Source: Deltaproteobacteria bacterium (GTDB lineage: Bacteria > UBA10199 > JACPAL01). From it: DNA of 64,000 nt. The notes beneath the pieces were generated by a model, which searched no databases, was not told the DNA's origin, and worked only from the letters and a program-made list of their open reading frames with translations. Made by a program: the position numbers and the translations under genes. Shown in pieces: positions 15,990-36,481 of this stretch; position 1 is the stretch's first letter; each line of letters begins with the position of its first letter. The stretch covers positions 489,497-553,496 of the forward strand of contig JACPAK010000001.1 of the NCBI GenBank assembly GCA_016180845.1, given 5' to 3'.

Positions 15990-16928
15990 CTAAAAAACAA
16001 CCCAGCCCGATCCCTTAAATCCAAAGTTAAAGACCTCGGGATGAAAGATTTCCGCTAAGATTTCAAGTGATTCGACCAACCTTGGTCCGGGTCGATTGAA
16101 GTATTGGTTCCCATCCAGAAGATAGACCTTCTTGTTCCGAACCGCCTTGAGTTGAGCCCATCCCCTCCGTTCGGTAAGAACCGCCATCTCACTTCGAACC
16201 TTTTCAATCCCCCATCCACAGGGAAGACAAAGAATGATATCTGGATCCTTTTTAACAAGATCCTCCCACGTCATCCATGGCGAATGCTTTCCCGCCTCGC
16301 CAAAGAGATTCACTCCTCCGGCCATTTCCACAAGCTCCGGCATCCAGTTTCCTGCCGCCATGAGGGGATCGAGCCACTCGATACAGGCGACGGCCGGTTT
16401 TGATGATATATTCATGGAGCGGTTGGCTCGGGTCGGGCGCCCGCCCTGAGATAGGACCCGCTCCATTCTTTCTTTAAGCTCGGTGACCAATATTTTTCCA
16501 TGCTCCGCAATCCCCAACGCCTCCGCCACCTTTTGGATATCCCTCCAAAGATCGGCGAGAGATTCTGTCTTCAGAGAAACAATCTTCGGTCGCGATGGAA
16601 TAATCTCACAGACCGCCGCCTCCACATCCTTGAGGCTCACCGCGCAGACCTCGCATTGATCTTGGGTAACAATGACGTCGGGTTTTAATTTCCGTAAGAG
16701 ATCGGCATCGACACGATAAACAGAAATCCCTTCCTGGACGATCGCCTTGACCCGTTGGTCAATCTCATAGCTTGTTCCATCTGTATTGAATTTGGGTTCG
16801 GTACAGACCGGAAGTTTGCTGACCCATTTAGGATAATCACACTCATGGGAACGACCGACAAGTTGATCGCCACAACCTAAGGCACAGACAATTTCCGTAC
16901 TACTCGCAATCAAGGAGAGAATTCTCAT
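15990..16928 (-). CDS. cobalamin-binding-type solute-binding protein
   Basis: A 312-aa protein with the two-lobed TroA/BtuF fold: the start RILSLIASSTEIVCALGCG, then LVGRSHECDYP and PDVIVTQDQCEVCAVS, and in the second half the segment LDPLMAAGNWMPELVEMAGG. The family binds vitamin B12 or metal chelates for ABC import. The protein begins directly with the mature fold and has no signal peptide, so it may act in the cytoplasm or be a distinct cobalamin-related protein. Its start overlaps the stop of the symporter gene by 4 nt, and no btuC or btuD lies nearby. Ligand is inferred from the family only. Confidence 0.75.
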   Translation of the reverse strand: MRILSLIASSTEIVCALGCGDQLVGRSHECDYPKWVSKLPVCTEPKFNTDGTSYEIDQRVKAIVQEGISVYRVDADLLRKLKPDVIVTQDQCEVCAVSLKDVEAAVCEIIPSRPKIVSLKTESLADLWRDIQKVAEALGIAEHGKILVTELKERMERVLSQGGRPTRANRSMNISSKPAVACIEWLDPLMAAGNWMPELVEMAGGVNLFGEAGKHSPWMTWEDLVKKDPDIILCLPCGWGIEKVRSEMAVLTERRGWAQLKAVRNKKVYLLDGNQYFNRPGPRLVESLEILAEIFHPEVFNFGFKGSGWVVF

Positions 16929-23141: not shown

Positions 23142-25436
23142 GTGAAAAAAACCGGTCCAAAAAATCATGTCGTTGAAACAACCCCCGAACTTGTCCGAAC
23201 GGTTTACGAAAGGATTGACTCAAACCTCAAGATCATCCGAAAGCGTCTCGGTCGTCCCCTGACGTTGGCCGAAAAGATTCTCCTCGGTCATCTCGAAGAT
23301 CCGAAGGGACAGGCGCTCGCTCCTGGGAAGGCGATCCTGAATCTCAAGGTCGATCGCGTTGCCCTGCAAGATGCGACCGCCCAGATGTGTCTGCTCCAAT
23401 TCATGCTCGCCGGACGCGATCGAACAGCGGTGCCAACGACGGTCCACTGCGATCATCTGATCCGTGCCCACAGTGGAGCCCGAGAGGACATGGCTGTTGC
23501 GATGACAGAAAATCGCGAGGTGTATGAATTTCTAAAAACAGTCTCCAAAAAATATGGGATTGGCTTCTGGGGTCCGGGTGCCGGGATTATTCATCAGGTG
23601 GTTCTCGAACAATATGCTTTTCCCGGCGGGATGATGATCGGGACCGACTCTCATACCCCGAATGCTGGCGGACTCGGAATGATTGCGATCGGTGTCGGAG
23701 GGGCCGATGCGGTCGACGTAATGGTCGGGATGAGCTGGGAGGTCCTGCAACCCAAGCTGGTCGGTGTCAAGTTGACCGGGGAATTGAACGGCTGGACCGC
23801 CCCGAAGGATGTGATCCTGAAGGTCTGTGAGATTCTCACGACAAAGGGGGGGACCAATAACATCGTCGAATATTTCGGACCGGGCGCCCGTTCCCTCTCG
23901 GCGACAGGAAAAGGAACGATTACGAACATGGGGGCCGAACTCGGGGCGACCACCTCCATCTTCCCTTATGATCAGGCGACACGAGATTATCTTGTTGCGA
24001 CCCAACGGGAAAAGATCGCTTCCATCGCCGATTCCTGCCGAGAGATACTTCAGGCCGATCCGGAGGTAGAGAAAAATCCGGGAAAATTCTTTGACCATCT
24101 GATCGAGATTGATCTCTCGACTCTCGAGCCGCATATTGTCGGTCCCCATTCTCCCGATCTGGCCCGACCGATTTCAAAGTTAAAAAAAGATGTTCGTGAG
24201 AAAAACTATCCGGACACTATCAAATATGCCTTGATCGGGAGCTGTACCAATTCCTCCTACGAAGACATCGAGCGGGCGGCAGAAGTGGCGCGGCAGGCGA
24301 AGGAGCTCGGACTCAAGACACAAATCCCGCTTTTGATTACCCCCGGCTCGGAACAGGTCCGTGCGACGATCGAACGAGACGGCCAGATGGCGATCCTCGA
24401 AGAGATCGGTGGAACTGTCTTGGCCAATGCCTGTGGCCCTTGTATCGGGCAGTGGAAGCGGGATGACATCCAGAAGGGGGATCGAAATTCTATTCTCACC
24501 TCTTATAATCGAAACTTTCCGCGTCGGAATGACGGCAATCCTGAAACCTATGCCTTTATCGGGAGTCCCGAGATCGTCGTCGCGATGAGTCTCGTCGGAA
24601 ATCTCTCGTTTGATCCACTCCATGATCCCCTCTCAACCCCAAGCGGGAAAAAGATTGGCCTCAGGCCGCCGCGTCGCGCCGATCCGCTTCCAAAAAAGGG
24701 TTTCATCTTTTCAAAAGTCGGATACTTACCCCCCGCTGAGGAGGGGCAGAAGATCGAGGTGGCAATCGATCCGAAAAGTAATCGTTTACAAAAGTTGACA
24801 CCCTTTCCCGCCTGGGACGGAAACGATTTTGAAAAGTTGCCGGTCTTGGCCAAGGCAAAAGGAAAATGTACGACTGATCATATCTCACCTGCAGGACCGT
24901 GGTTGAAATTTCGAGGCCATCTCGATCATATCAGTGACAACGCCTTCACGGGTGTTCACAACGCCTTTTCTCATGAGGCCGGGAAGGGGATCAATATCCT
25001 GACGGGAGAGAAGGATCATGAGCTCCCGAAGATCGCGCGCTATTATAAGGAGAAGGGGGAGCGGTGGGTGATGGTCGGCGATGAAAACTACGGCGAAGGG
25101 TCGAGTCGCGAACATGCGGCGATGAGCCCGCGCTTTCTGGGGTGTGCCGCCGTCGTCACGAAGAGTTTTGCGAGGATTCACGAAACGAATCTCAAGAAGC
25201 AGGGGATTCTGCCACTCACCTTTGCCGATCCGAAGGATTACGAAAAAATCGAGGCGACCGATCGGGTCAGCATCCGAGGTCTCAAGGCCCTCAAACCACA
25301 CAAACCTCTCGAGATGATTCTGTATCATCAGGATGGAAAAGAAGAAACTCTCTCCGTCCTCCACAGTATGACCGAGACACAACTCACTTGGTTCAAGGCC
25401 GGTTCAGCCCTCAATGCCCTGAAGTCAAAGGCCTAA
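23142..25436 (+). CDS. acn: aconitate hydratase (mitochondrial-type)
   Basis: A 764-aa aconitase that isomerises citrate to isocitrate in the TCA cycle. The Fe-S cluster ligands are visible: Cys in LIGSCTNSSYEDIERA and the CxxC of ANACGPCIGQW. Other marks are MIGTDSHTPNAGGLGM and the swivel-domain GDENYGEGSSREHAA. The length and sequence resemble the mitochondrial-type AcnA group (about 760 aa), not bacterial AcnB. The start is a GTG at 23142, 46 nt from the divergent ABC operon. A possible relic of a second C-terminus lies at 27362-27421. Confidence 0.95.
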   Translation: MKKTGPKNHVVETTPELVRTVYERIDSNLKIIRKRLGRPLTLAEKILLGHLEDPKGQALAPGKAILNLKVDRVALQDATAQMCLLQFMLAGRDRTAVPTTVHCDHLIRAHSGAREDMAVAMTENREVYEFLKTVSKKYGIGFWGPGAGIIHQVVLEQYAFPGGMMIGTDSHTPNAGGLGMIAIGVGGADAVDVMVGMSWEVLQPKLVGVKLTGELNGWTAPKDVILKVCEILTTKGGTNNIVEYFGPGARSLSATGKGTITNMGAELGATTSIFPYDQATRDYLVATQREKIASIADSCREILQADPEVEKNPGKFFDHLIEIDLSTLEPHIVGPHSPDLARPISKLKKDVREKNYPDTIKYALIGSCTNSSYEDIERAAEVARQAKELGLKTQIPLLITPGSEQVRATIERDGQMAILEEIGGTVLANACGPCIGQWKRDDIQKGDRNSILTSYNRNFPRRNDGNPETYAFIGSPEIVVAMSLVGNLSFDPLHDPLSTPSGKKIGLRPPRRADPLPKKGFIFSKVGYLPPAEEGQKIEVAIDPKSNRLQKLTPFPAWDGNDFEKLPVLAKAKGKCTTDHISPAGPWLKFRGHLDHISDNAFTGVHNAFSHEAGKGINILTGEKDHELPKIARYYKEKGERWVMVGDENYGEGSSREHAAMSPRFLGCAAVVTKSFARIHETNLKKQGILPLTFADPKDYEKIEATDRVSIRGLKALKPHKPLEMILYHQDGKEETLSVLHSMTETQLTWFKAGSALNALKSKA

Positions 25437-26579
25437 TTCACGAAGCCCCTGATCCCAAGGGAGTACCGATACGGAACCGATTTTTTTTGGCCATGGATCA
25501 CGGGAAAGGCAAAACGCCTCTGCCTTTTTGAAATCAGGGAGAAATCGTTCCAAAGTTCTCGTGTCCCTTTCATCTGCATGATCGGTTGATTTGATCTCGA
25601 TCAAGGCGGTTGGCATCCCCGGTCTTTCGACAATCAGGTCAATTTCAGAATCATCTTTTGTCCTGAGGTAGAAAAATCGAAAGTCTTTCCGGTGATAACT
25701 ATTCAACCGGTACGCTTCCAAAATCACGAAATGTTCAAACGCGAGCCCATAGGCGTAAGAGCCGGGAGTTAGGGAAGATTCAAGTGTCCTTTCCATGGCC
25801 CGCCTGACCCCAAGGTCAAAGAGATAAAATTTCGGATTATGTCGTTGGCGTTTTCGAACTGAATAATGGAATGGTTCCAAGAGGACTCCCACCAGGGTAT
25901 CTTCCAGAATGGAAAAATAGGATTGAACGGTAGGGGTCTCGACGCCCACATCCCGGGCTACGTTTGAATAGTTGACAATCTGCCCGCTGGTTTGGGCGGC
26001 GATTTCCAAAAAACGCCGGAACGGCTCCAGTTGCCGAATCAGATGTTCCGCCCAAATTTCCTCCTTCAGGTAGGTGTGCGCGTAGGCCCGCAGAAACTCG
26101 TTTTTCTCCTCCGGCAAAGAAAGCTGTGTCACGCGGGGGAGTGAACCGTAGTGCAATGCCGCAGTGAGATCGAATTGATTCCCCATTTCAGTGTGGGTCA
26201 GGGGAAAAAGGTGGTTCAGGAAGGCGCGGCCGGCCAATAAGTTCGCTCCCTCTTTTTTCAATTTGCGAGGACTTGATCCCGTCAGGGCAAACTTTTTGCC
26301 AGAGGATTCTATGTGGTGATGAACAAGATCGAGGAGCTTTGGTGCCTTCTGGATTTCGTCAATGACGATCCAGGCAAACTCCTTCAGTGCCTCGCTCTGG
26401 TAAGATAGGGGACCGGCCTCGCGGGAATAGGCCTCCTCCACCTTTGGGTCGAGGAGATCAATCCATAGAACCTTTTCCTTCTCAAAGAACCTCTTGAGAA
26501 ATGTCGTTTTACCCGTACCACGTGGCCCAAATATAAAAAAACTGTTTGATTTCAATGGTCTTATAACTCTATTTATCAT
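25425..26579 (-). CDS. DUF4143-type AAA ATPase
   Basis: A 384-aa protein of the AAA_14/DUF4143 family. The N-terminal ATPase has Walker A FIFGPRGTGKTTFLKRF at about 15-31 and Walker B WIVIDEIQKAPKLLDL near 70-85, then sensor ALTGSSPRKLKK. The C-terminal half has a winged-helix-like part and ends in a restriction-like domain (EIDLIVERPGM, then ALIEIKSTDHAD) that has the D-ExK nuclease pattern. These are common in bacteria and archaea, have variable neighbours and no firm function. The stop overlaps the aconitase end by 12 nt. Its start region is AT-rich, which fits a mobile accessory gene. Confidence 0.85.
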   Translation of the reverse strand: MINRVIRPLKSNSFFIFGPRGTGKTTFLKRFFEKEKVLWIDLLDPKVEEAYSREAGPLSYQSEALKEFAWIVIDEIQKAPKLLDLVHHHIESSGKKFALTGSSPRKLKKEGANLLAGRAFLNHLFPLTHTEMGNQFDLTAALHYGSLPRVTQLSLPEEKNEFLRAYAHTYLKEEIWAEHLIRQLEPFRRFLEIAAQTSGQIVNYSNVARDVGVETPTVQSYFSILEDTLVGVLLEPFHYSVRKRQRHNPKFYLFDLGVRRAMERTLESSLTPGSYAYGLAFEHFVILEAYRLNSYHRKDFRFFYLRTKDDSEIDLIVERPGMPTALIEIKSTDHADERDTRTLERFLPDFKKAEAFCLSRDPWPKKIGSVSVLPWDQGLRELGL

Positions 26580-28902: not shown

Positions 28903-28975
28903 ACCGCCCCTTTTCGTTTCAGAAATTTTTTTGGAACCAATTTCCGAGCCTCCGGTGTCGCCGCCTCCATTGAGA
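28899..28975 (-). pseudogene. relic of a nuclease/lamin-tail protein C-terminus
   Basis: The minus strand reads GKEISMEAATPEARKLVPKK then FLKRKGAV and TAG (28899-28901). The C-terminus of the intact gene at 31078-33465 is EISMEASTPEARKLVPKKFL then KRKGAIAK. Upstream the match fades within a few codons. It is the tail of a third copy, overlapping the dhh stop codon. Confidence 0.8.
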
Positions 28976-29107
28976 TCTCTTTGCCGTTATGGGGTGGCCT
29001 ATCCCCGATCCGTCTCAAGCAAACCCTACTTCCGAAAGGGTCACCCCAATGCCTCATAGATTAACAAGTTATATCAATAGGTTATTGGTCAAATTTCCTT
29101 CTCTCCT

Positions 29108-31077: not shown

Positions 31078-33465
31078 CTACTTAGCTATCGCCCCCTTCC
31101 GTTTCAGGAATTTTTTTGGGACCAGTTTTCGCGCCTCTGGTGTCGATGCCTCCATCGAGATCTCATCCCCTTTCGGATTGAGAAGAACCATCGGGAGGTT
31201 GTTGTCCCAAATCGGATCATCGGCACGCGTTTCTTTGAGATAGAGGCGCAGATGACTGGCAGGATCAAAACTGCTTTTGCCCGAGCAGGTAAAGAGCTGA
31301 ACGGCCCGGTAGGGCGGAATGACGGTCCCCGGAGGCAGTTTGATCTCCCTCTTCCCGTTTCTCAATGTCCAACCGGAGAGATCGACCTCCTCGTCGCTAT
31401 GATTGTAAAGACGCGTATTTTCCTTCAGATCACGAAACCCTGAAACATGTTGAAGGGGATTGAGTGCCATCACATGGACCCCTGCTTCACGTTCATGGCG
31501 GTATTCGACAGAAACCTTCTCATTCGCTTCACTTCCAGGGATATGAACCGAAACGACCTTCTTCTCCGGTCCCGCCTCCAACAACTCGACCGGTGAGCTT
31601 GAATCGAGGAGCTGATGGCGTTTTTGGCGCGCCCCTTCCCTTGCCGTGATCGATAATTCACGATTGATATTGTCATTGAATCCTGTTCCGCAGAAGAAGA
31701 CTTTCACCACCTCTCCCGGTTGAAGGAGTAGGTCAGGTAGCGTCACCGTCATTTTACCATTACGGACTTTCATCCCCCCGAGAGGATAGGCGCGATCGGC
31801 GGAAAGATTGCAAACCCTGACATAGTCAATATGGGGATGGGCGTCGGGATCATTCGTAAAGGTCCGGTATCCCGTCACGTGGAGTCCTCTCCGGTAGTGC
31901 GGATATTGCCAGATTCCAAGCCCTTGTTCCTGTACCTTCAGTTGCAGCCCCAGGAAGCGATTTCTCTTCCCCGTGATATCGGGCGTGATGCAATAGACAT
32001 GTGCATGTCCCGCCTCGATTAGTGCGCGATTGACATCGAGCCAGTGACCCTCCTTTGTCTGCACAAAGACATGGACCACAGGTCTCCCATACGCATCTGA
32101 TCGATGAAGCCGAACACGGACTGTTCGTCCATGCATTTCGATCAGATCCGATAAAAACCAGTAAGCCTCCAGAGCCCCCAGCTCTCCTTTCGCATTCCTC
32201 GTCTCGGGGTGTCCGCTTCCTTTGGCTGCCTCGGGGCTATTGGCGAGGATCAATCGTAATGGGACAGATTCCTTCATCCCCTCAACCACCACCTCCATCG
32301 TATCCCCATCGGTGATTCCATACCCCTCTTCCTTGCCCGCTCGCATCCTGATGACCTTCAACGGTTCCTCAGAGGCATAGGGGACCCGGTTTTCGGTCAG
32401 TCCCGCCTTTCGTGTACTTTTCAGTTTTCTAATGAGAGCCGCAGCGGCCTTTTCATCACGACCCAAGCGACGTTTGGGTGGGGCAACCAACGGGAGATCC
32501 CGAAGGAGATCCGGTCCCGGCTCAAAAACGACAATCTCTGGTGGTTCCGGCAAGATTTCCGCGACTCTTTCGGCATCTGTGGCCTCTCCCCCTCTTCGGG
32601 TGAGAAGAAGGGTATCATCAGCGGCAGGAACAGCGGCCCCTTCATCAAAGGGTTGTGCCAGAATAACCCTCTCTTCCGAAAATGCCTGTTCTCTCGCGAA
32701 TCGCCTTTCTTCGAACCAAAGATCCAGATGACATCGTGTTGCCTGTCCCACCTTTTCACCGGAGGCCCAGGTAAACGGCTGTTTGGTCGGCTCGTAGGCC
32801 TCGATATACCCGCGGGCAGTTCCCCCGACAAACCGCCCCATCCCCATGTACAAGAGACCGTTCCCCAGCTCTTCCCCGATTCTCTGCCACGCGGTGAGAT
32901 CCCTTTTTTGTTGAAGACCGGTCGATTCGAGTGTCGATCCGATCCCGGCAGAGGCGAACGCCTGCACGACTTCCGTACCGGCATCGAAGACCAAGAGCTG
33001 ACTGATATTCCGGAAGACCTGCGCCCCTCCCATCCCGAGCATTGTTGAGGGGATGGAATAAAGAAGACCGATCAGCCACTGATTCAGATTTTCGCGGGTC
33101 CTGTCTGGGGGTTCCGCCCACCCGTGCTCACCCGTTGCACGCGGGGGGGCGCCCGACCCCCAGACACCCGCTCTGACAATGGTCATCAATCCGGAAGTGA
33201 CGACTGAGATCGTTGCGGATGAGAGAAAGAGTGGGAGCCAGAAACCACGGACTCCCAGATTGTTAAGTCCCCCCGTAATCCGGGGCATCAGAAACCGATT
33301 GATTCCGAAGAAGGCGGCCGAGGTCCCGGCGATTTCTGTCAGACCACCAGCGGTCAGGTGTTGGGCAAGGCCTGCCTGACCTCTGTTGAAAGAATTCGCC
33401 GCCTGAAGCCCTGTGGCTAAGGCGTAATCGCGTGTGGTGGGTGAAAATGAATCGGGGACACCCAT
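31078..33465 (-). CDS. membrane-anchored SNase/lamin-tail protein, paralog 1
   Basis: A 795-aa multidomain protein. Residues 1-240 form an Ala/Gly-rich N-module with hydrophobic segments (FWLPLFLSSATISVVTSGLM, GLLYSIPSTMLGMGG). A variable acidic/Pro-rich region follows, then a staphylococcal-nuclease domain at about 390-540: ITDGDTMEVVVEG, VPLRLILANSPE, SDAYGRPVVHVFV, NRALIEAGHAHVY. It keeps the family's catalytic Arg, Glu and Arg, but the second Asp of the metal site is Asn or Ala. Two lamin-tail beta domains follow (VRVCNLSADRAYPLGG; TRLYNHSDEEVDLSGWTLRN). It lies 18 nt after paralog 2, sharing a nearly identical N-module with it. Likely a surface or exported DNA-processing enzyme; this is inference. 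Confidence 0.75.
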   Translation of the reverse strand: MGVPDSFSPTTRDYALATGLQAANSFNRGQAGLAQHLTAGGLTEIAGTSAAFFGINRFLMPRITGGLNNLGVRGFWLPLFLSSATISVVTSGLMTIVRAGVWGSGAPPRATGEHGWAEPPDRTRENLNQWLIGLLYSIPSTMLGMGGAQVFRNISQLLVFDAGTEVVQAFASAGIGSTLESTGLQQKRDLTAWQRIGEELGNGLLYMGMGRFVGGTARGYIEAYEPTKQPFTWASGEKVGQATRCHLDLWFEERRFAREQAFSEERVILAQPFDEGAAVPAADDTLLLTRRGGEATDAERVAEILPEPPEIVVFEPGPDLLRDLPLVAPPKRRLGRDEKAAAALIRKLKSTRKAGLTENRVPYASEEPLKVIRMRAGKEEGYGITDGDTMEVVVEGMKESVPLRLILANSPEAAKGSGHPETRNAKGELGALEAYWFLSDLIEMHGRTVRVRLHRSDAYGRPVVHVFVQTKEGHWLDVNRALIEAGHAHVYCITPDITGKRNRFLGLQLKVQEQGLGIWQYPHYRRGLHVTGYRTFTNDPDAHPHIDYVRVCNLSADRAYPLGGMKVRNGKMTVTLPDLLLQPGEVVKVFFCGTGFNDNINRELSITAREGARQKRHQLLDSSSPVELLEAGPEKKVVSVHIPGSEANEKVSVEYRHEREAGVHVMALNPLQHVSGFRDLKENTRLYNHSDEEVDLSGWTLRNGKREIKLPPGTVIPPYRAVQLFTCSGKSSFDPASHLRLYLKETRADDPIWDNNLPMVLLNPKGDEISMEASTPEARKLVPKKFLKRKGAIAK

Positions 33466-33483
33466 CTGTCAGCGCCTTTGTTT

Positions 33484-35904
33484 TTAGAAGACGTGTCCTC
33501 TTAACGCCCTGAATTTAGGATCGAGTTTTGCGAACGCCGCAGCGCTCGCAGCCTCTTGACACATGAGATGCCCATCGGGATGGATCAATTCGAGGGGATC
33601 ATCCTGGTGCCAGAAGTGATGGTCTTTTCTCCTTGATCCAAACTCCTGGAGATCCAATTCGAGGTCGATAAACATCTCAGCCCGCCCGTTCATATTATAA
33701 GGCGTCCCATCGTAGACGGAAGAGTGACTGTAGAGTTTGACCCCGTGGGCGGGTGGGAGCCAGAAATCACGCTTAATCTCGGTGACACGATCACCAACCT
33801 TTACCTTATATCCTTTGAGATTGACGTAATGGGTGCTCGTATTAAAGACGCGCAAATATTCCTTGTTTGCAGGGGATTTTCTGTCATTGCGTGATGGCTT
33901 CCAAGCGGGATCCATTTGATGCGCATATCCATGATAGCTTGTGACAAAAAGATCCTCACTCGCGAGGACTGGATGTTGCCAGATCCCACGTCGCGCCGCG
34001 CGGGCCTCTTCCTGGGCCGCAATATACTCATGAATCATCCCAGAGCTATCGGGGGTAATAAAATAGGCATGCGCCCAGCCTGCCCTGACCAGTTCCAGAT
34101 TGACATTGATATACGGGTCTTCTCCCTTCGGGACCTCTCCCTTTTTCTTGAGATAGACCTCACAGACGGGGCGTCCGTAGTCATCCACCTCATAGACCCT
34201 CAGATAGACCTTATTATCATGGGCTGCGAGCAGGTCTTGCAAGAATTTCCAGCCGCCGTATGCCCCAAACTCTCCTCGCAGGCATCGCCACTCCGGTGGG
34301 AGGACTTGGTCACCGAGATATTCGTGGGTCGCCTCCAGCGTATTCGCACAGGCGAAGCGGATTGAAATCGATTCCCGCATCCCCTCCGCCCAGACATGGA
34401 TCGTATCCCCATCGACGACAGGGAAGAAAAACGGATTTTCGGCCGGGTCCATATACTTCCCATCCCGGACCCTTCGAACCTGAAATTCAAGATCGGCAAT
34501 ATAGGGGACATCGGTATAGATTGTCTGTCCCTTGCGAAGCCCCATCCGAATAAGATTATCAGACAACTGCGCACGCAGCCGCCCCTTAACCCTTGTATCT
34601 GTGATATTTGCCGTCAGGCGATTAATCATCTCCCAAATCTGATCCTCCAAGGCTACCTTCCCCTGACGTGCTTCACCACCACCCCTGGAGGCAGGACCGA
34701 GAAGCGCCTCGGCTAATTGACCCCGCGCCCTTCTTTTCTCTCCAGGATCGCCAATCCCCTTTGTCAGATCATTAATAACATTCCAGACCTTGTCCCTCGG
34801 ATTAGAGCCCAGTTTGTCGGTGATGAAGGCCTTCTCCAATCGGGTTCGGAGTTGCGCCCTCAGATCGTCACTCCTGATACCGGAGCAGACCCGATCAATC
34901 ATCGTCCCAAGTTCCCGTTCGAGGGCGAGTCGTTCCCTGGGAGATTTTGTGGCAGCTGCTGCTTGAGCATCGGCAGTAGGTGCCTTTGACCTCACATCCC
35001 GTGCGCCAGGACCAAGCAACGCCTCGGCCAGTTCCGCCCTGACCCTTTGTTTCTCAGCAGGGTTCCGGATCGACCGCGTCGACTCATCGATCATATGCCA
35101 GATGCGAGTCCTCAGATTATTTCGGGTATGTCGTCGGACAAGGGTCCGTAATGCATAGGCCGCAATCCGGTTTGCTCGAACCTGTTTGATATCATCGGTC
35201 CGCTCCGGGTACCACCTCGCCTGATCCTCGCTCCCCCTTTTCCAGGGGGCGGAGATCCAAGGGGGGTTATCGAGATCGATACCGGGGGGGAGATCAGGTC
35301 GAAGAGGGAGAGCCCCCACCTCCATTGCTGCCATCTCTGCAAGTCTGATTTCTTCTGTGGACCGAAGTCGATCGACCAGAGTATCGATTCCAAACCGTAG
35401 TCGCTGCCCAACCTTCTCACCAGAGACCCAGGTAAACGGCTGTTTGGTCGGTTCGTAGGCCTCGATATACCCGCGAGCAGTTCCCCCGACAAACCGCCCC
35501 ATCCCCATGTACAAGAGACCGGTCGCCAGCTCTTCCCCGATTCTCTGCCACGCGGTGAGATCCCTCTTTTGTTGAAGACCGGTCGACTCGAGTGTCGATC
35601 CGATACCGGCAGAGGCAAACGCCTGGACGACTTCCGTCCCGGCATCGAAGACCAAGAATTGACTGATATTCCGGAAAACTTGAGAGCCCCCCATCCCGAG
35701 CATTGTTGAGGGGATCGACATGAGGAGACCGACAGACCACTGCTGAAGCCCATTTTGTCCCGGGGCAAATTGATCGTATTTTAAACGCTGCCAGCCGGTC
35801 ATCAAGGTATTGGTGACGACTGAGATCGCTGCAGATGAGAGAAAGAGTGGGAGCCAGAATCCACGGACTCCCAGATTATTAAGTCCCCCCGTGATCCGGG
35901 GCAT
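33484..35904 (-). CDS. SNase/lamin-tail protein, paralog 2 (5' end damaged)
   Basis: An 806-aa frame from an internal ATG at MPRITGGLNNLGVRG. The N-module is almost identical to paralog 1, and the DNA agrees at about nine in ten positions, but the middle (ERLALERELGTMIDRVCSG with charged helical repeats) and nuclease domain (VVDGDTIHVWAEG, ISIRFACANTLE, VDDYGRPVCEVYL, LVRAGWAHAYFI) have diverged strongly. The SNase catalytic residues are present. One lamin-tail segment (EYLRVFNTSTHYVNLKGYKV) follows. The 5' 40 codons seen in paralog 1 are out of frame here (see 35905-36032), so the protein may begin internally or be nonfunctional. Confidence 0.65.
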   Translation of the reverse strand: MPRITGGLNNLGVRGFWLPLFLSSAAISVVTNTLMTGWQRLKYDQFAPGQNGLQQWSVGLLMSIPSTMLGMGGSQVFRNISQFLVFDAGTEVVQAFASAGIGSTLESTGLQQKRDLTAWQRIGEELATGLLYMGMGRFVGGTARGYIEAYEPTKQPFTWVSGEKVGQRLRFGIDTLVDRLRSTEEIRLAEMAAMEVGALPLRPDLPPGIDLDNPPWISAPWKRGSEDQARWYPERTDDIKQVRANRIAAYALRTLVRRHTRNNLRTRIWHMIDESTRSIRNPAEKQRVRAELAEALLGPGARDVRSKAPTADAQAAAATKSPRERLALERELGTMIDRVCSGIRSDDLRAQLRTRLEKAFITDKLGSNPRDKVWNVINDLTKGIGDPGEKRRARGQLAEALLGPASRGGGEARQGKVALEDQIWEMINRLTANITDTRVKGRLRAQLSDNLIRMGLRKGQTIYTDVPYIADLEFQVRRVRDGKYMDPAENPFFFPVVDGDTIHVWAEGMRESISIRFACANTLEATHEYLGDQVLPPEWRCLRGEFGAYGGWKFLQDLLAAHDNKVYLRVYEVDDYGRPVCEVYLKKKGEVPKGEDPYINVNLELVRAGWAHAYFITPDSSGMIHEYIAAQEEARAARRGIWQHPVLASEDLFVTSYHGYAHQMDPAWKPSRNDRKSPANKEYLRVFNTSTHYVNLKGYKVKVGDRVTEIKRDFWLPPAHGVKLYSHSSVYDGTPYNMNGRAEMFIDLELDLQEFGSRRKDHHFWHQDDPLELIHPDGHLMCQEAASAAAFAKLDPKFRALRGHVF

Positions 35905-36032
35905 CAGAAACCGATTGATTCCGAAGAAGGCGGCCGAGGTCCCGGCGATTTCTGTCAGACCACCAGCGGTCAGGTGTTGGGCAAGGCCTGCCGTGTGGTG
36001 GGTGAAAATGAATCTGGAAAACCTGCCCCCAT
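35905..36032 (-). pseudogene. frameshifted 5' end of paralog 2
   Basis: The ATG at 36032 gives GAGFPDSFSPTTR as in paralog 1, but a 55-bp segment present in paralog 1 (between GCAAGGCCTGCC and GTGTGGTGGG on the plus strand, junction near 35992) is missing. The loss is not a multiple of three, so this start stops after about 20 codons, out of frame with the main ORF. The rest of the interval matches paralog 1's GLAQHLTAGGLTEIAGTSAA. Confidence 0.75.
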
Positions 36033-36109
36033 GTTCCCAGTCCCCCTATCTGTCACTGCCATCGTCGAACCTCAAAAGAGGTTGCTCGTTATTTTGATGA
36101 AAGGAGAGA

Positions 36110-36157: not shown

Positions 36158-36481
36158 CTACTGCAGGGTCTTTTGAGGTTTGTTGGAGACCTCGTGGAGG
36201 GTGGACGGGCCGGTGACTGTCAGATACTTCTCGAGTTTCTGAAGCATCTTCGGGCCGATCCCCTTGATCTCGGAAAGTTCCTCAGATGACTTGAACGGAT
36301 GCGCCTGCCGATAGGCGACGATCGCCTCTGCCTTCGATTTTCCAATCCCTGGCAGGAGCATGAGTTCTTGCACGGAGGCGGTGTTGAGATTCACGATCCC
36401 TTCGACCTCTTTTGTTTTTGCAGAGGCGAAAGAACTGATGAGGCTGATGGCCACGAGGGCCATAAGTACTGTTTTTTTCAT
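36158..36481 (-). CDS. comEA: ComEA-like helix-hairpin-helix DNA-binding protein
   Basis: A 107-aa exported protein. The signal peptide is MKKTVLMALVAISLISSFASA. The mature part has two HhH units: NLNTASVQELMLLPGIGKSK (residues 31-50) and IKGIGPKMLQKLEKYL near 72-87. Such proteins bind double-stranded DNA at the periplasmic face of the uptake machinery in competence. It lies immediately before the nuclease/lamin-tail genes, which is of interest because DNA uptake needs nucleases, but comEC and pilus genes are not in the window. Confidence 0.85.
   Translation of the reverse strand: MKKTVLMALVAISLISSFASAKTKEVEGIVNLNTASVQELMLLPGIGKSKAEAIVAYRQAHPFKSSEELSEIKGIGPKMLQKLEKYLTVTGPSTLHEVSNKPQKTLQ

What the first reader, a model, noticed from the sequence alone, without database searches (positions are those of the whole stretch)
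31078..36032. Tandem nuclease/lamin-tail genes with a shared N-module and diverged C-termini
The two paralogs are roughly 90 % identical in DNA over the N-terminal ~240 codons but clearly diverged in the nuclease half. A conserved targeting module on variable nuclease ends resembles polymorphic toxins or a family under recombination. They encode SNase plus lamin-tail domains with hydrophobic N-modules and no obvious immunity gene, so an extracellular nutrient or DNA-processing role is also possible.
Basis: partly seen in the sequence, partly recalled or inferred. Interest (0 to 1): 0.75.

Follow-up and report, generated by a model that had tools for sequence, protein, structure and literature searches.

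The report
Tandem nucleases with homogenised membrane-like N-module
Two neighbouring genes encode predicted DNA-cutting enzymes whose front third is kept nearly identical by DNA exchange while the enzyme parts drift apart, the same front module caps other enzymes in this lineage, and one gene carries in frame a copy of a structured, apparently mobile hairpin that also sits inside about twenty other genes, most of them housekeeping genes.

Summary
Genes 31078-33465 and 33484-36045 (both - strand) share an N-module (most aligned blocks 92-97% identical in DNA) and diverge sharply after it (34% aa). Both carry SNase and lamin-tail domains.

The N-module heads at least five kinds of C-terminus (SNase-LTD, MBL+cNMP, HExxH peptidase-like, ExeM/NucH-like nuclease, one unknown) in two genera of one family, and was found nowhere else. 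C-termini are orthologous across the genera (gene 1~SN2, gene 2~SN1), but N-modules group within each genome: independent homogenisation by recombination. No member inspected has an immunity-like neighbour; one sits between obgE and proB.

It has 23 copies in this genome, 21 inside ORFs (20 with Pfam support, e.g. AccC, TilS, DnaX, HemB, CcmF), and relatives elsewhere in the phylum. It resembles Rickettsia palindromic elements; homology to them was not tested.

The parts
31078..33465 (-). gene 1: N-module + SNase + lamin-tail domain(s), 795 aa
   Evidence: ORF; Pfam
32746..33465 (-). N-module of gene 1 (residues 1-240)
   Evidence: alignment with gene 2 and with paralogues
33083..33182 (-). 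in-frame copy of the dispersed palindromic element (core 33095-33170) in a loop of the N-module, absent from gene 2
   Evidence: covariance model 94.9 bits (this copy was one of the 23 used to build the model); 23 genomic copies; alignment with gene 2
31906..32214 (-). SNase domain of gene 1 (residues 418-520)
   Evidence: PF00565, E 1.5e-8
31156..31413 (-). C-terminal lamin-tail domain of gene 1 (residues 685-770)
   Evidence: PF00932, E 3.2e-9
33484..36045 (-). gene 2 open frame: N-module + SNase + lamin-tail domain; first in-frame ATG at 35904
   Evidence: ORF; Pfam
35401..36006 (-). N-module of gene 2
   Evidence: alignment
35992..35993 (-). junction of a 55-bp deletion relative to gene 1 that throws the ATG at 36032 out of frame
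   Evidence: DNA alignment, reading frames
33976..34245 (-). SNase domain of gene 2
   Evidence: PF00565, E 9e-12
33691..33879 (-). lamin-tail domain of gene 2 (below gathering score)
   Evidence: PF00932, E 9.9e-4
28905..28988 (-). 84-bp remnant copy (82%) of the 3' end of gene 1
   Evidence: direct repeat; 86% aa match

Best explanation
Genes 1 and 2 are two old paralogues of a SNase-lamin-tail DNase that, in this bacterial family only, carry a ~215-240-residue hydrophobic helical N-module. The module is a shared delivery/anchoring part used by several large enzymes of the lineage (two DNase types, a metallopeptidase-like protein, an MBL hydrolase with cyclic-nucleotide domains). Shown: the shared module, its several C-termini, and that within each genome the N-modules of the SNase pair have been homogenised by recombination (gene conversion the simplest form) independently of their C-termini. 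Inferred: the module sits in or crosses the cell envelope, and genes 1 and 2 degrade or trim DNA at or outside the cell surface (scavenging or DNA processing); the adjacent ComEA-like gene is circumstantial. Separately shown: gene 1 carries, in frame in a loop of the N-module, one copy of a mobile-looking palindromic element that also interrupts about twenty other protein genes in this genome.
For: Five kinds of C-terminus behind one profile. Reciprocal pattern: C-termini gene 1~SN2 51% aa and gene 2~SN1 44%, against 30-34% for all other pairs; N-modules gene 1~gene 2 86%, SN1~SN2 93%, against 32-33% between genera. Trees: own N-modules together 100/100, G001 group 100/99; C-termini gene 1+SN2 98/95. 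N-module dS 0.10-0.27 against pN 0.01-0.02. SNase catalytic positions DGDT, Arg, Glu and YGR kept in both (residue roles from established knowledge of staphylococcal nuclease). LTD in surface nucleases: Xds of V. cholerae (PMC6746945). Element.
Against: No signal peptide is evident and the hydrophobic stretches are weak (maximum Kyte-Doolittle mean 1.0-1.95), so membrane location is not demonstrated. The MBL member has cNMP domains, which are usually cytosolic. The Asp that binds calcium in staphylococcal nuclease (D40) is Asn in all four SNase members, so activity is not certain. Gene 2 may be losing its N-terminus (55-bp deletion). Only two genomes carry the module, and the G001 SNase genes lie at contig ends, so their N-modules are partial (about 106 aligned residues).
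Confidence: 0.6

Rival explanations
1. Polymorphic-toxin-like system: a conserved trafficking module on variable effector ends, used against competitors.
For: Conserved N-module with at least five different C-termini, three of them nuclease or peptidase types; hydrophobic N-module; an orphan gene-1 tail at 28905-28988.
Against: No immunity gene next to genes 1/2 (the downstream gene is convergent and codes a 645-aa Ig-like/BNR-like protein); no other member inspected has an immunity-like neighbour (obgE, proB, DUF1646, sigma-70); C-termini are 350-800 aa and orthologous across genera; not on plasmids or phages.
Confidence: 0.1
2. A single recent duplication of the whole gene, with the C-termini diverging fast under selection and the N-module conserved by constraint, without gene conversion.
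For: Tandem arrangement; N-modules nearly identical.
Against: C-termini are each orthologous to a different gene in another genus, so the duplication predates the split, while N-modules are far closer within each genome. Synonymous sites in the N-module are also little diverged (dS 0.10-0.27), which constraint on the protein does not explain.
Confidence: 0.05
3. Both genes are non-functional leftovers: gene 2 frameshifted at its 5' end, gene 1 interrupted by a mobile repeat, with N-module identity reflecting a recent segmental copy.
For: 55-bp frameshifting deletion in gene 2; element in gene 1; remnant gene end at 28905-28988.
Against: Open frames of 795 and 806-853 codons are preserved; N-module changes are mostly synonymous (20 against 5); the element keeps the frame in gene 1 and the same element sits in genes expected to be essential; catalytic motifs largely kept.
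Confidence: 0.2

Closest known systems
Staphylococcal-nuclease-like secreted DNases (Pfam SNase PF00565; NCBIfam EcnA NF047969 far below cut-off)
   Same: SNase motifs DGDT, Arg, Glu and YGR
   Different: about 800 aa with an unknown N-module and lamin-tail domain(s); D40 replaced by Asn; no signal peptide evident
ExeM/NucH/Xds extracellular nucleases with lamin-tail domain (PMC6746945)
   Same: LTD on a nuclease; a G001 paralogue with the same N-module matches the ExeM/NucH model (E 7e-34, below that model's cut-off)
   Different: the window genes use an SNase, not an EEP, catalytic domain; the N-module is new
Polymorphic toxins (from general knowledge)
   Same: conserved N-terminal part with different enzymatic C-termini; recombination in the N-part
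   Different: no immunity genes, no toxin-cassette arrangement, large stable orthologous C-termini, one member in the obgE-proB region
Rickettsia palindromic elements (Ogata et al., described in PMC10969869 and PMC2229807)
   Same: about 100-bp palindromic repeat inserted in frame in many unrelated housekeeping genes of one genome
   Different: unrelated lineage; read in all three sense frames and in antisense, with strong covariation of the stems; homology to RPE sequences was not tested

Membership tests
SNase nuclease | SNase domain above gathering score | tested here: met
   35.5 and 45.8 bits against a cut-off of 21
SNase nuclease | catalytic and metal-binding residues | tested here: inconclusive
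   DGDT, Arg, Glu and YGR kept; the Asp at the D40 position is Asn in all four
SNase nuclease | nuclease activity | not testable with these tools
   needs an assay
Lamin-tail-domain protein | LTD above gathering score | tested here: inconclusive
   gene 1 met (37.6 against 34.3); gene 2 below (19.9)
Polymorphic toxin | conserved N-module on different C-termini | tested here: met
Polymorphic toxin | adjacent immunity gene | tested here: not met
   neighbours
Polymorphic toxin | known trafficking or secretion module | tested here: not met
   N-module has no significant Pfam or PDB match
RPE-like protein-coding palindromic element | palindromic ~100-bp repeat, many dispersed copies | tested here: met
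   23 copies; 96.8% of pair cells paired
RPE-like protein-coding palindromic element | in-frame insertion in unrelated conserved genes | tested here: met
   20 copies in Pfam-supported genes plus gene 1; extra or unaligned residues at the element against PDB homologues in TilS, AccC and QueG
RPE-like protein-coding palindromic element | mobility (presence/absence between close genomes) | tested here: met
   only for a relative of the element in another family: sites occupied in G019 and empty in congener G043; not tested for the window copy
RPE-like protein-coding palindromic element | sequence homology to Rickettsia elements | not tested
   no Rickettsia element was compared

The most novel reading that the evidence does not exclude
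The repeat in gene 1 belongs to an undescribed phylum-wide family of mobile hairpins whose core loops stay conserved while the stems, including outer arms of up to ~30 bp, change freely but stay complementary. It would be recognised by its folded shape, and in this order it has repeatedly become in-frame protein sequence inside essential genes.
Probability: 0.4. Interest if true: 0.75.

Novelty: new variant of a known kind. Interest (0 to 1): 0.55.

Why it matters
It documents, in a little-known small-genome lineage, concerted evolution confined to one module of a multidomain enzyme family, seen independently in two genera. It also suggests that protein-coding palindromic elements, known from Rickettsia and Wolbachia, have a counterpart in an unrelated lineage, where genes expected to be essential carry inserts of about 24-26 residues read in different frames; this makes the tolerance and the spreading mechanism testable.

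Tried and rejected
Polymorphic toxin (no immunity gene). Recent whole-gene duplication (contradicted by C-terminal orthology). The element as a known RNA family: Rfam found only chance microRNA hits. The element as a transcription terminator or fixed regulatory RNA: rejected as the general explanation in this genome because copies lie inside genes in both orientations, although several copies in other families are intergenic. The outer arms as inverted copies of host sequence: one dnaE site hinted at it, but two empty sites lack both arms; those intergenic alignments are gapped, so the point is not fully settled. The species was not identified; the phylum is represented by only 46 genomes here.

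Full report
OBSERVATION. The two genes share long direct repeats, 300 bp at 92% and 180 bp at 97%. DNA similarity starts near the 5' ends and stops abruptly after the codons for GEKVGQ. The proteins then share only 34% identity in the SNase-LTD part. Both hold SNase and lamin-tail domains, the latter below the curated score in gene 2. The long frame is open from 36045 to 33484 with its first usual start codon at 35904. Either the protein is N-terminally shortened or the gene is beginning to decay.

N-MODULE IN OTHER PROTEINS. A profile of the module (A1) finds four genes in the window's genome and nine matches (some of them fragments) in the one other held genome of the same family, and none in the other 44 genomes of the class. 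It was not found in genome contigs, viral contigs, plasmids or phages, nor significantly in Pfam or PDB. C-termini: MBL plus two cNMP domains (both genomes), a peptidase-like protein with an HExxH motif (weak M36 match in the own copy; both genomes), an ExeM/NucH-like EEP nuclease, an unidentified 910-aa protein, and two SNase-LTD proteins. A SNase-LTD homologue in the same order (G003) lacks the module.

CONCERTED EVOLUTION. The C-terminal halves pair across genera: gene 1 with SN2 (51%) and gene 2 with SN1 (44%), against 30-34% otherwise. The N-modules pair within genomes: 86% and 93%, against 32-33% across. Trees agree (N-module: own pair 100/100, G001 group 100/99; C-terminus: gene 1+SN2 98/95). 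MBL orthologues, by contrast, keep their N-modules together across genera (99/99), so homogenisation affects some members only. In the window pair, synonymous divergence in the N-module is 0.10-0.27 and non-synonymous 0.01-0.02. Gene conversion or equivalent recombination is the simplest cause; the number of events is not resolved.

FUNCTION. Catalytic motifs of SNase are kept except that the D40-equivalent is Asn in all four members. The N-module has four or five weakly hydrophobic stretches. LTDs occur in surface nucleases such as Xds, though there the LTD is dispensable for localisation (PMC6746945). A ComEA-like helix-hairpin-helix gene lies directly upstream (36158-36481). An envelope-associated DNase is the best guess; it is inference. 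Neighbours give no sign of immunity genes.

THE ELEMENT IN GENE 1. Matches of gene 1 elsewhere in the genome exposed a dispersed repeat. It has 23 strong copies. Folded and aligned, it forms three stems; 96.8% of cells are paired and 14 pairs show changes on both sides, reached by none of 500 shuffles. Twenty-one copies lie inside ORFs: gene 1 plus twenty with Pfam support, including AccC, QueG, DnaX, YgfZ-like, IspE, TilS, CcmF, MurG, PurL-like, HemB, RsmE-like, NagZ-like, an IleRS-like synthetase and others, read in all three sense frames and in antisense. In two of these (the MurG and NagZ-like genes) the reading frame ends within the element; in the rest it stays open through it. TilS and AccC carry extra residues there against PDB homologues, and in QueG the stretch is left unaligned. 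The window holds a second, internally deleted copy at 16408-16472 inside another gene.

RELATIVES OF THE ELEMENT. The covariance model finds strong copies in the same order (G003, G005), where the four inspected are also inside ORFs, and weaker ones in other families of the class. Many weak hits may be chance hairpins. In family f13 the core is flanked by arms of about 30 bp that are complementary but differ between copies. Comparison of congeners shows occupied and empty sites, so that relative has moved or been lost recently. This resembles Rickettsia palindromic elements in behaviour (PMC10969869, PMC2229807); sequence homology was not tested.

LIMITS. Two genomes carry the N-module, one with its SNase genes broken at contig ends. 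No species name was obtained. Gene names given for element-bearing ORFs rest on Pfam domains and the look of the sequence, not on curated orthology.

Noticed in passing
window 16408-16472 (+): Internally deleted copy of the palindromic element (34.8 bits), inside a 312-aa ORF on the - strand (15990-16928).
   Followed up: partly
window 28905-28988 (-): 84-bp decayed copy of the 3' end of gene 1 just past the DHHA1-domain gene, 2185 bp from the original, with the 29137-31074 gene in between.
   Followed up: partly
L141 (G019:C46): The related element with ~30-bp arms sits in frame inside dnaE of a class member; dnaE of two relatives lacks it.
   Followed up: partly
L142 and L146: Two copies in one genome have recognisably related ~27-bp arms that differ at several places with compensation on the other arm.
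   Followed up: no
L073 3114-6134: A 1006-aa MBL + two-cNMP-domain protein with the N-module lies between obgE and proB; its cNMP part matches Pycsar effector models only through that domain.
   Followed up: no
L027 163-1314: In G001 a DUF4143 AAA ATPase gene follows the SNase gene; a similar-looking AAA ATPase ORF lies at window 25425-26579 (by eye, not tested).
   Followed up: no
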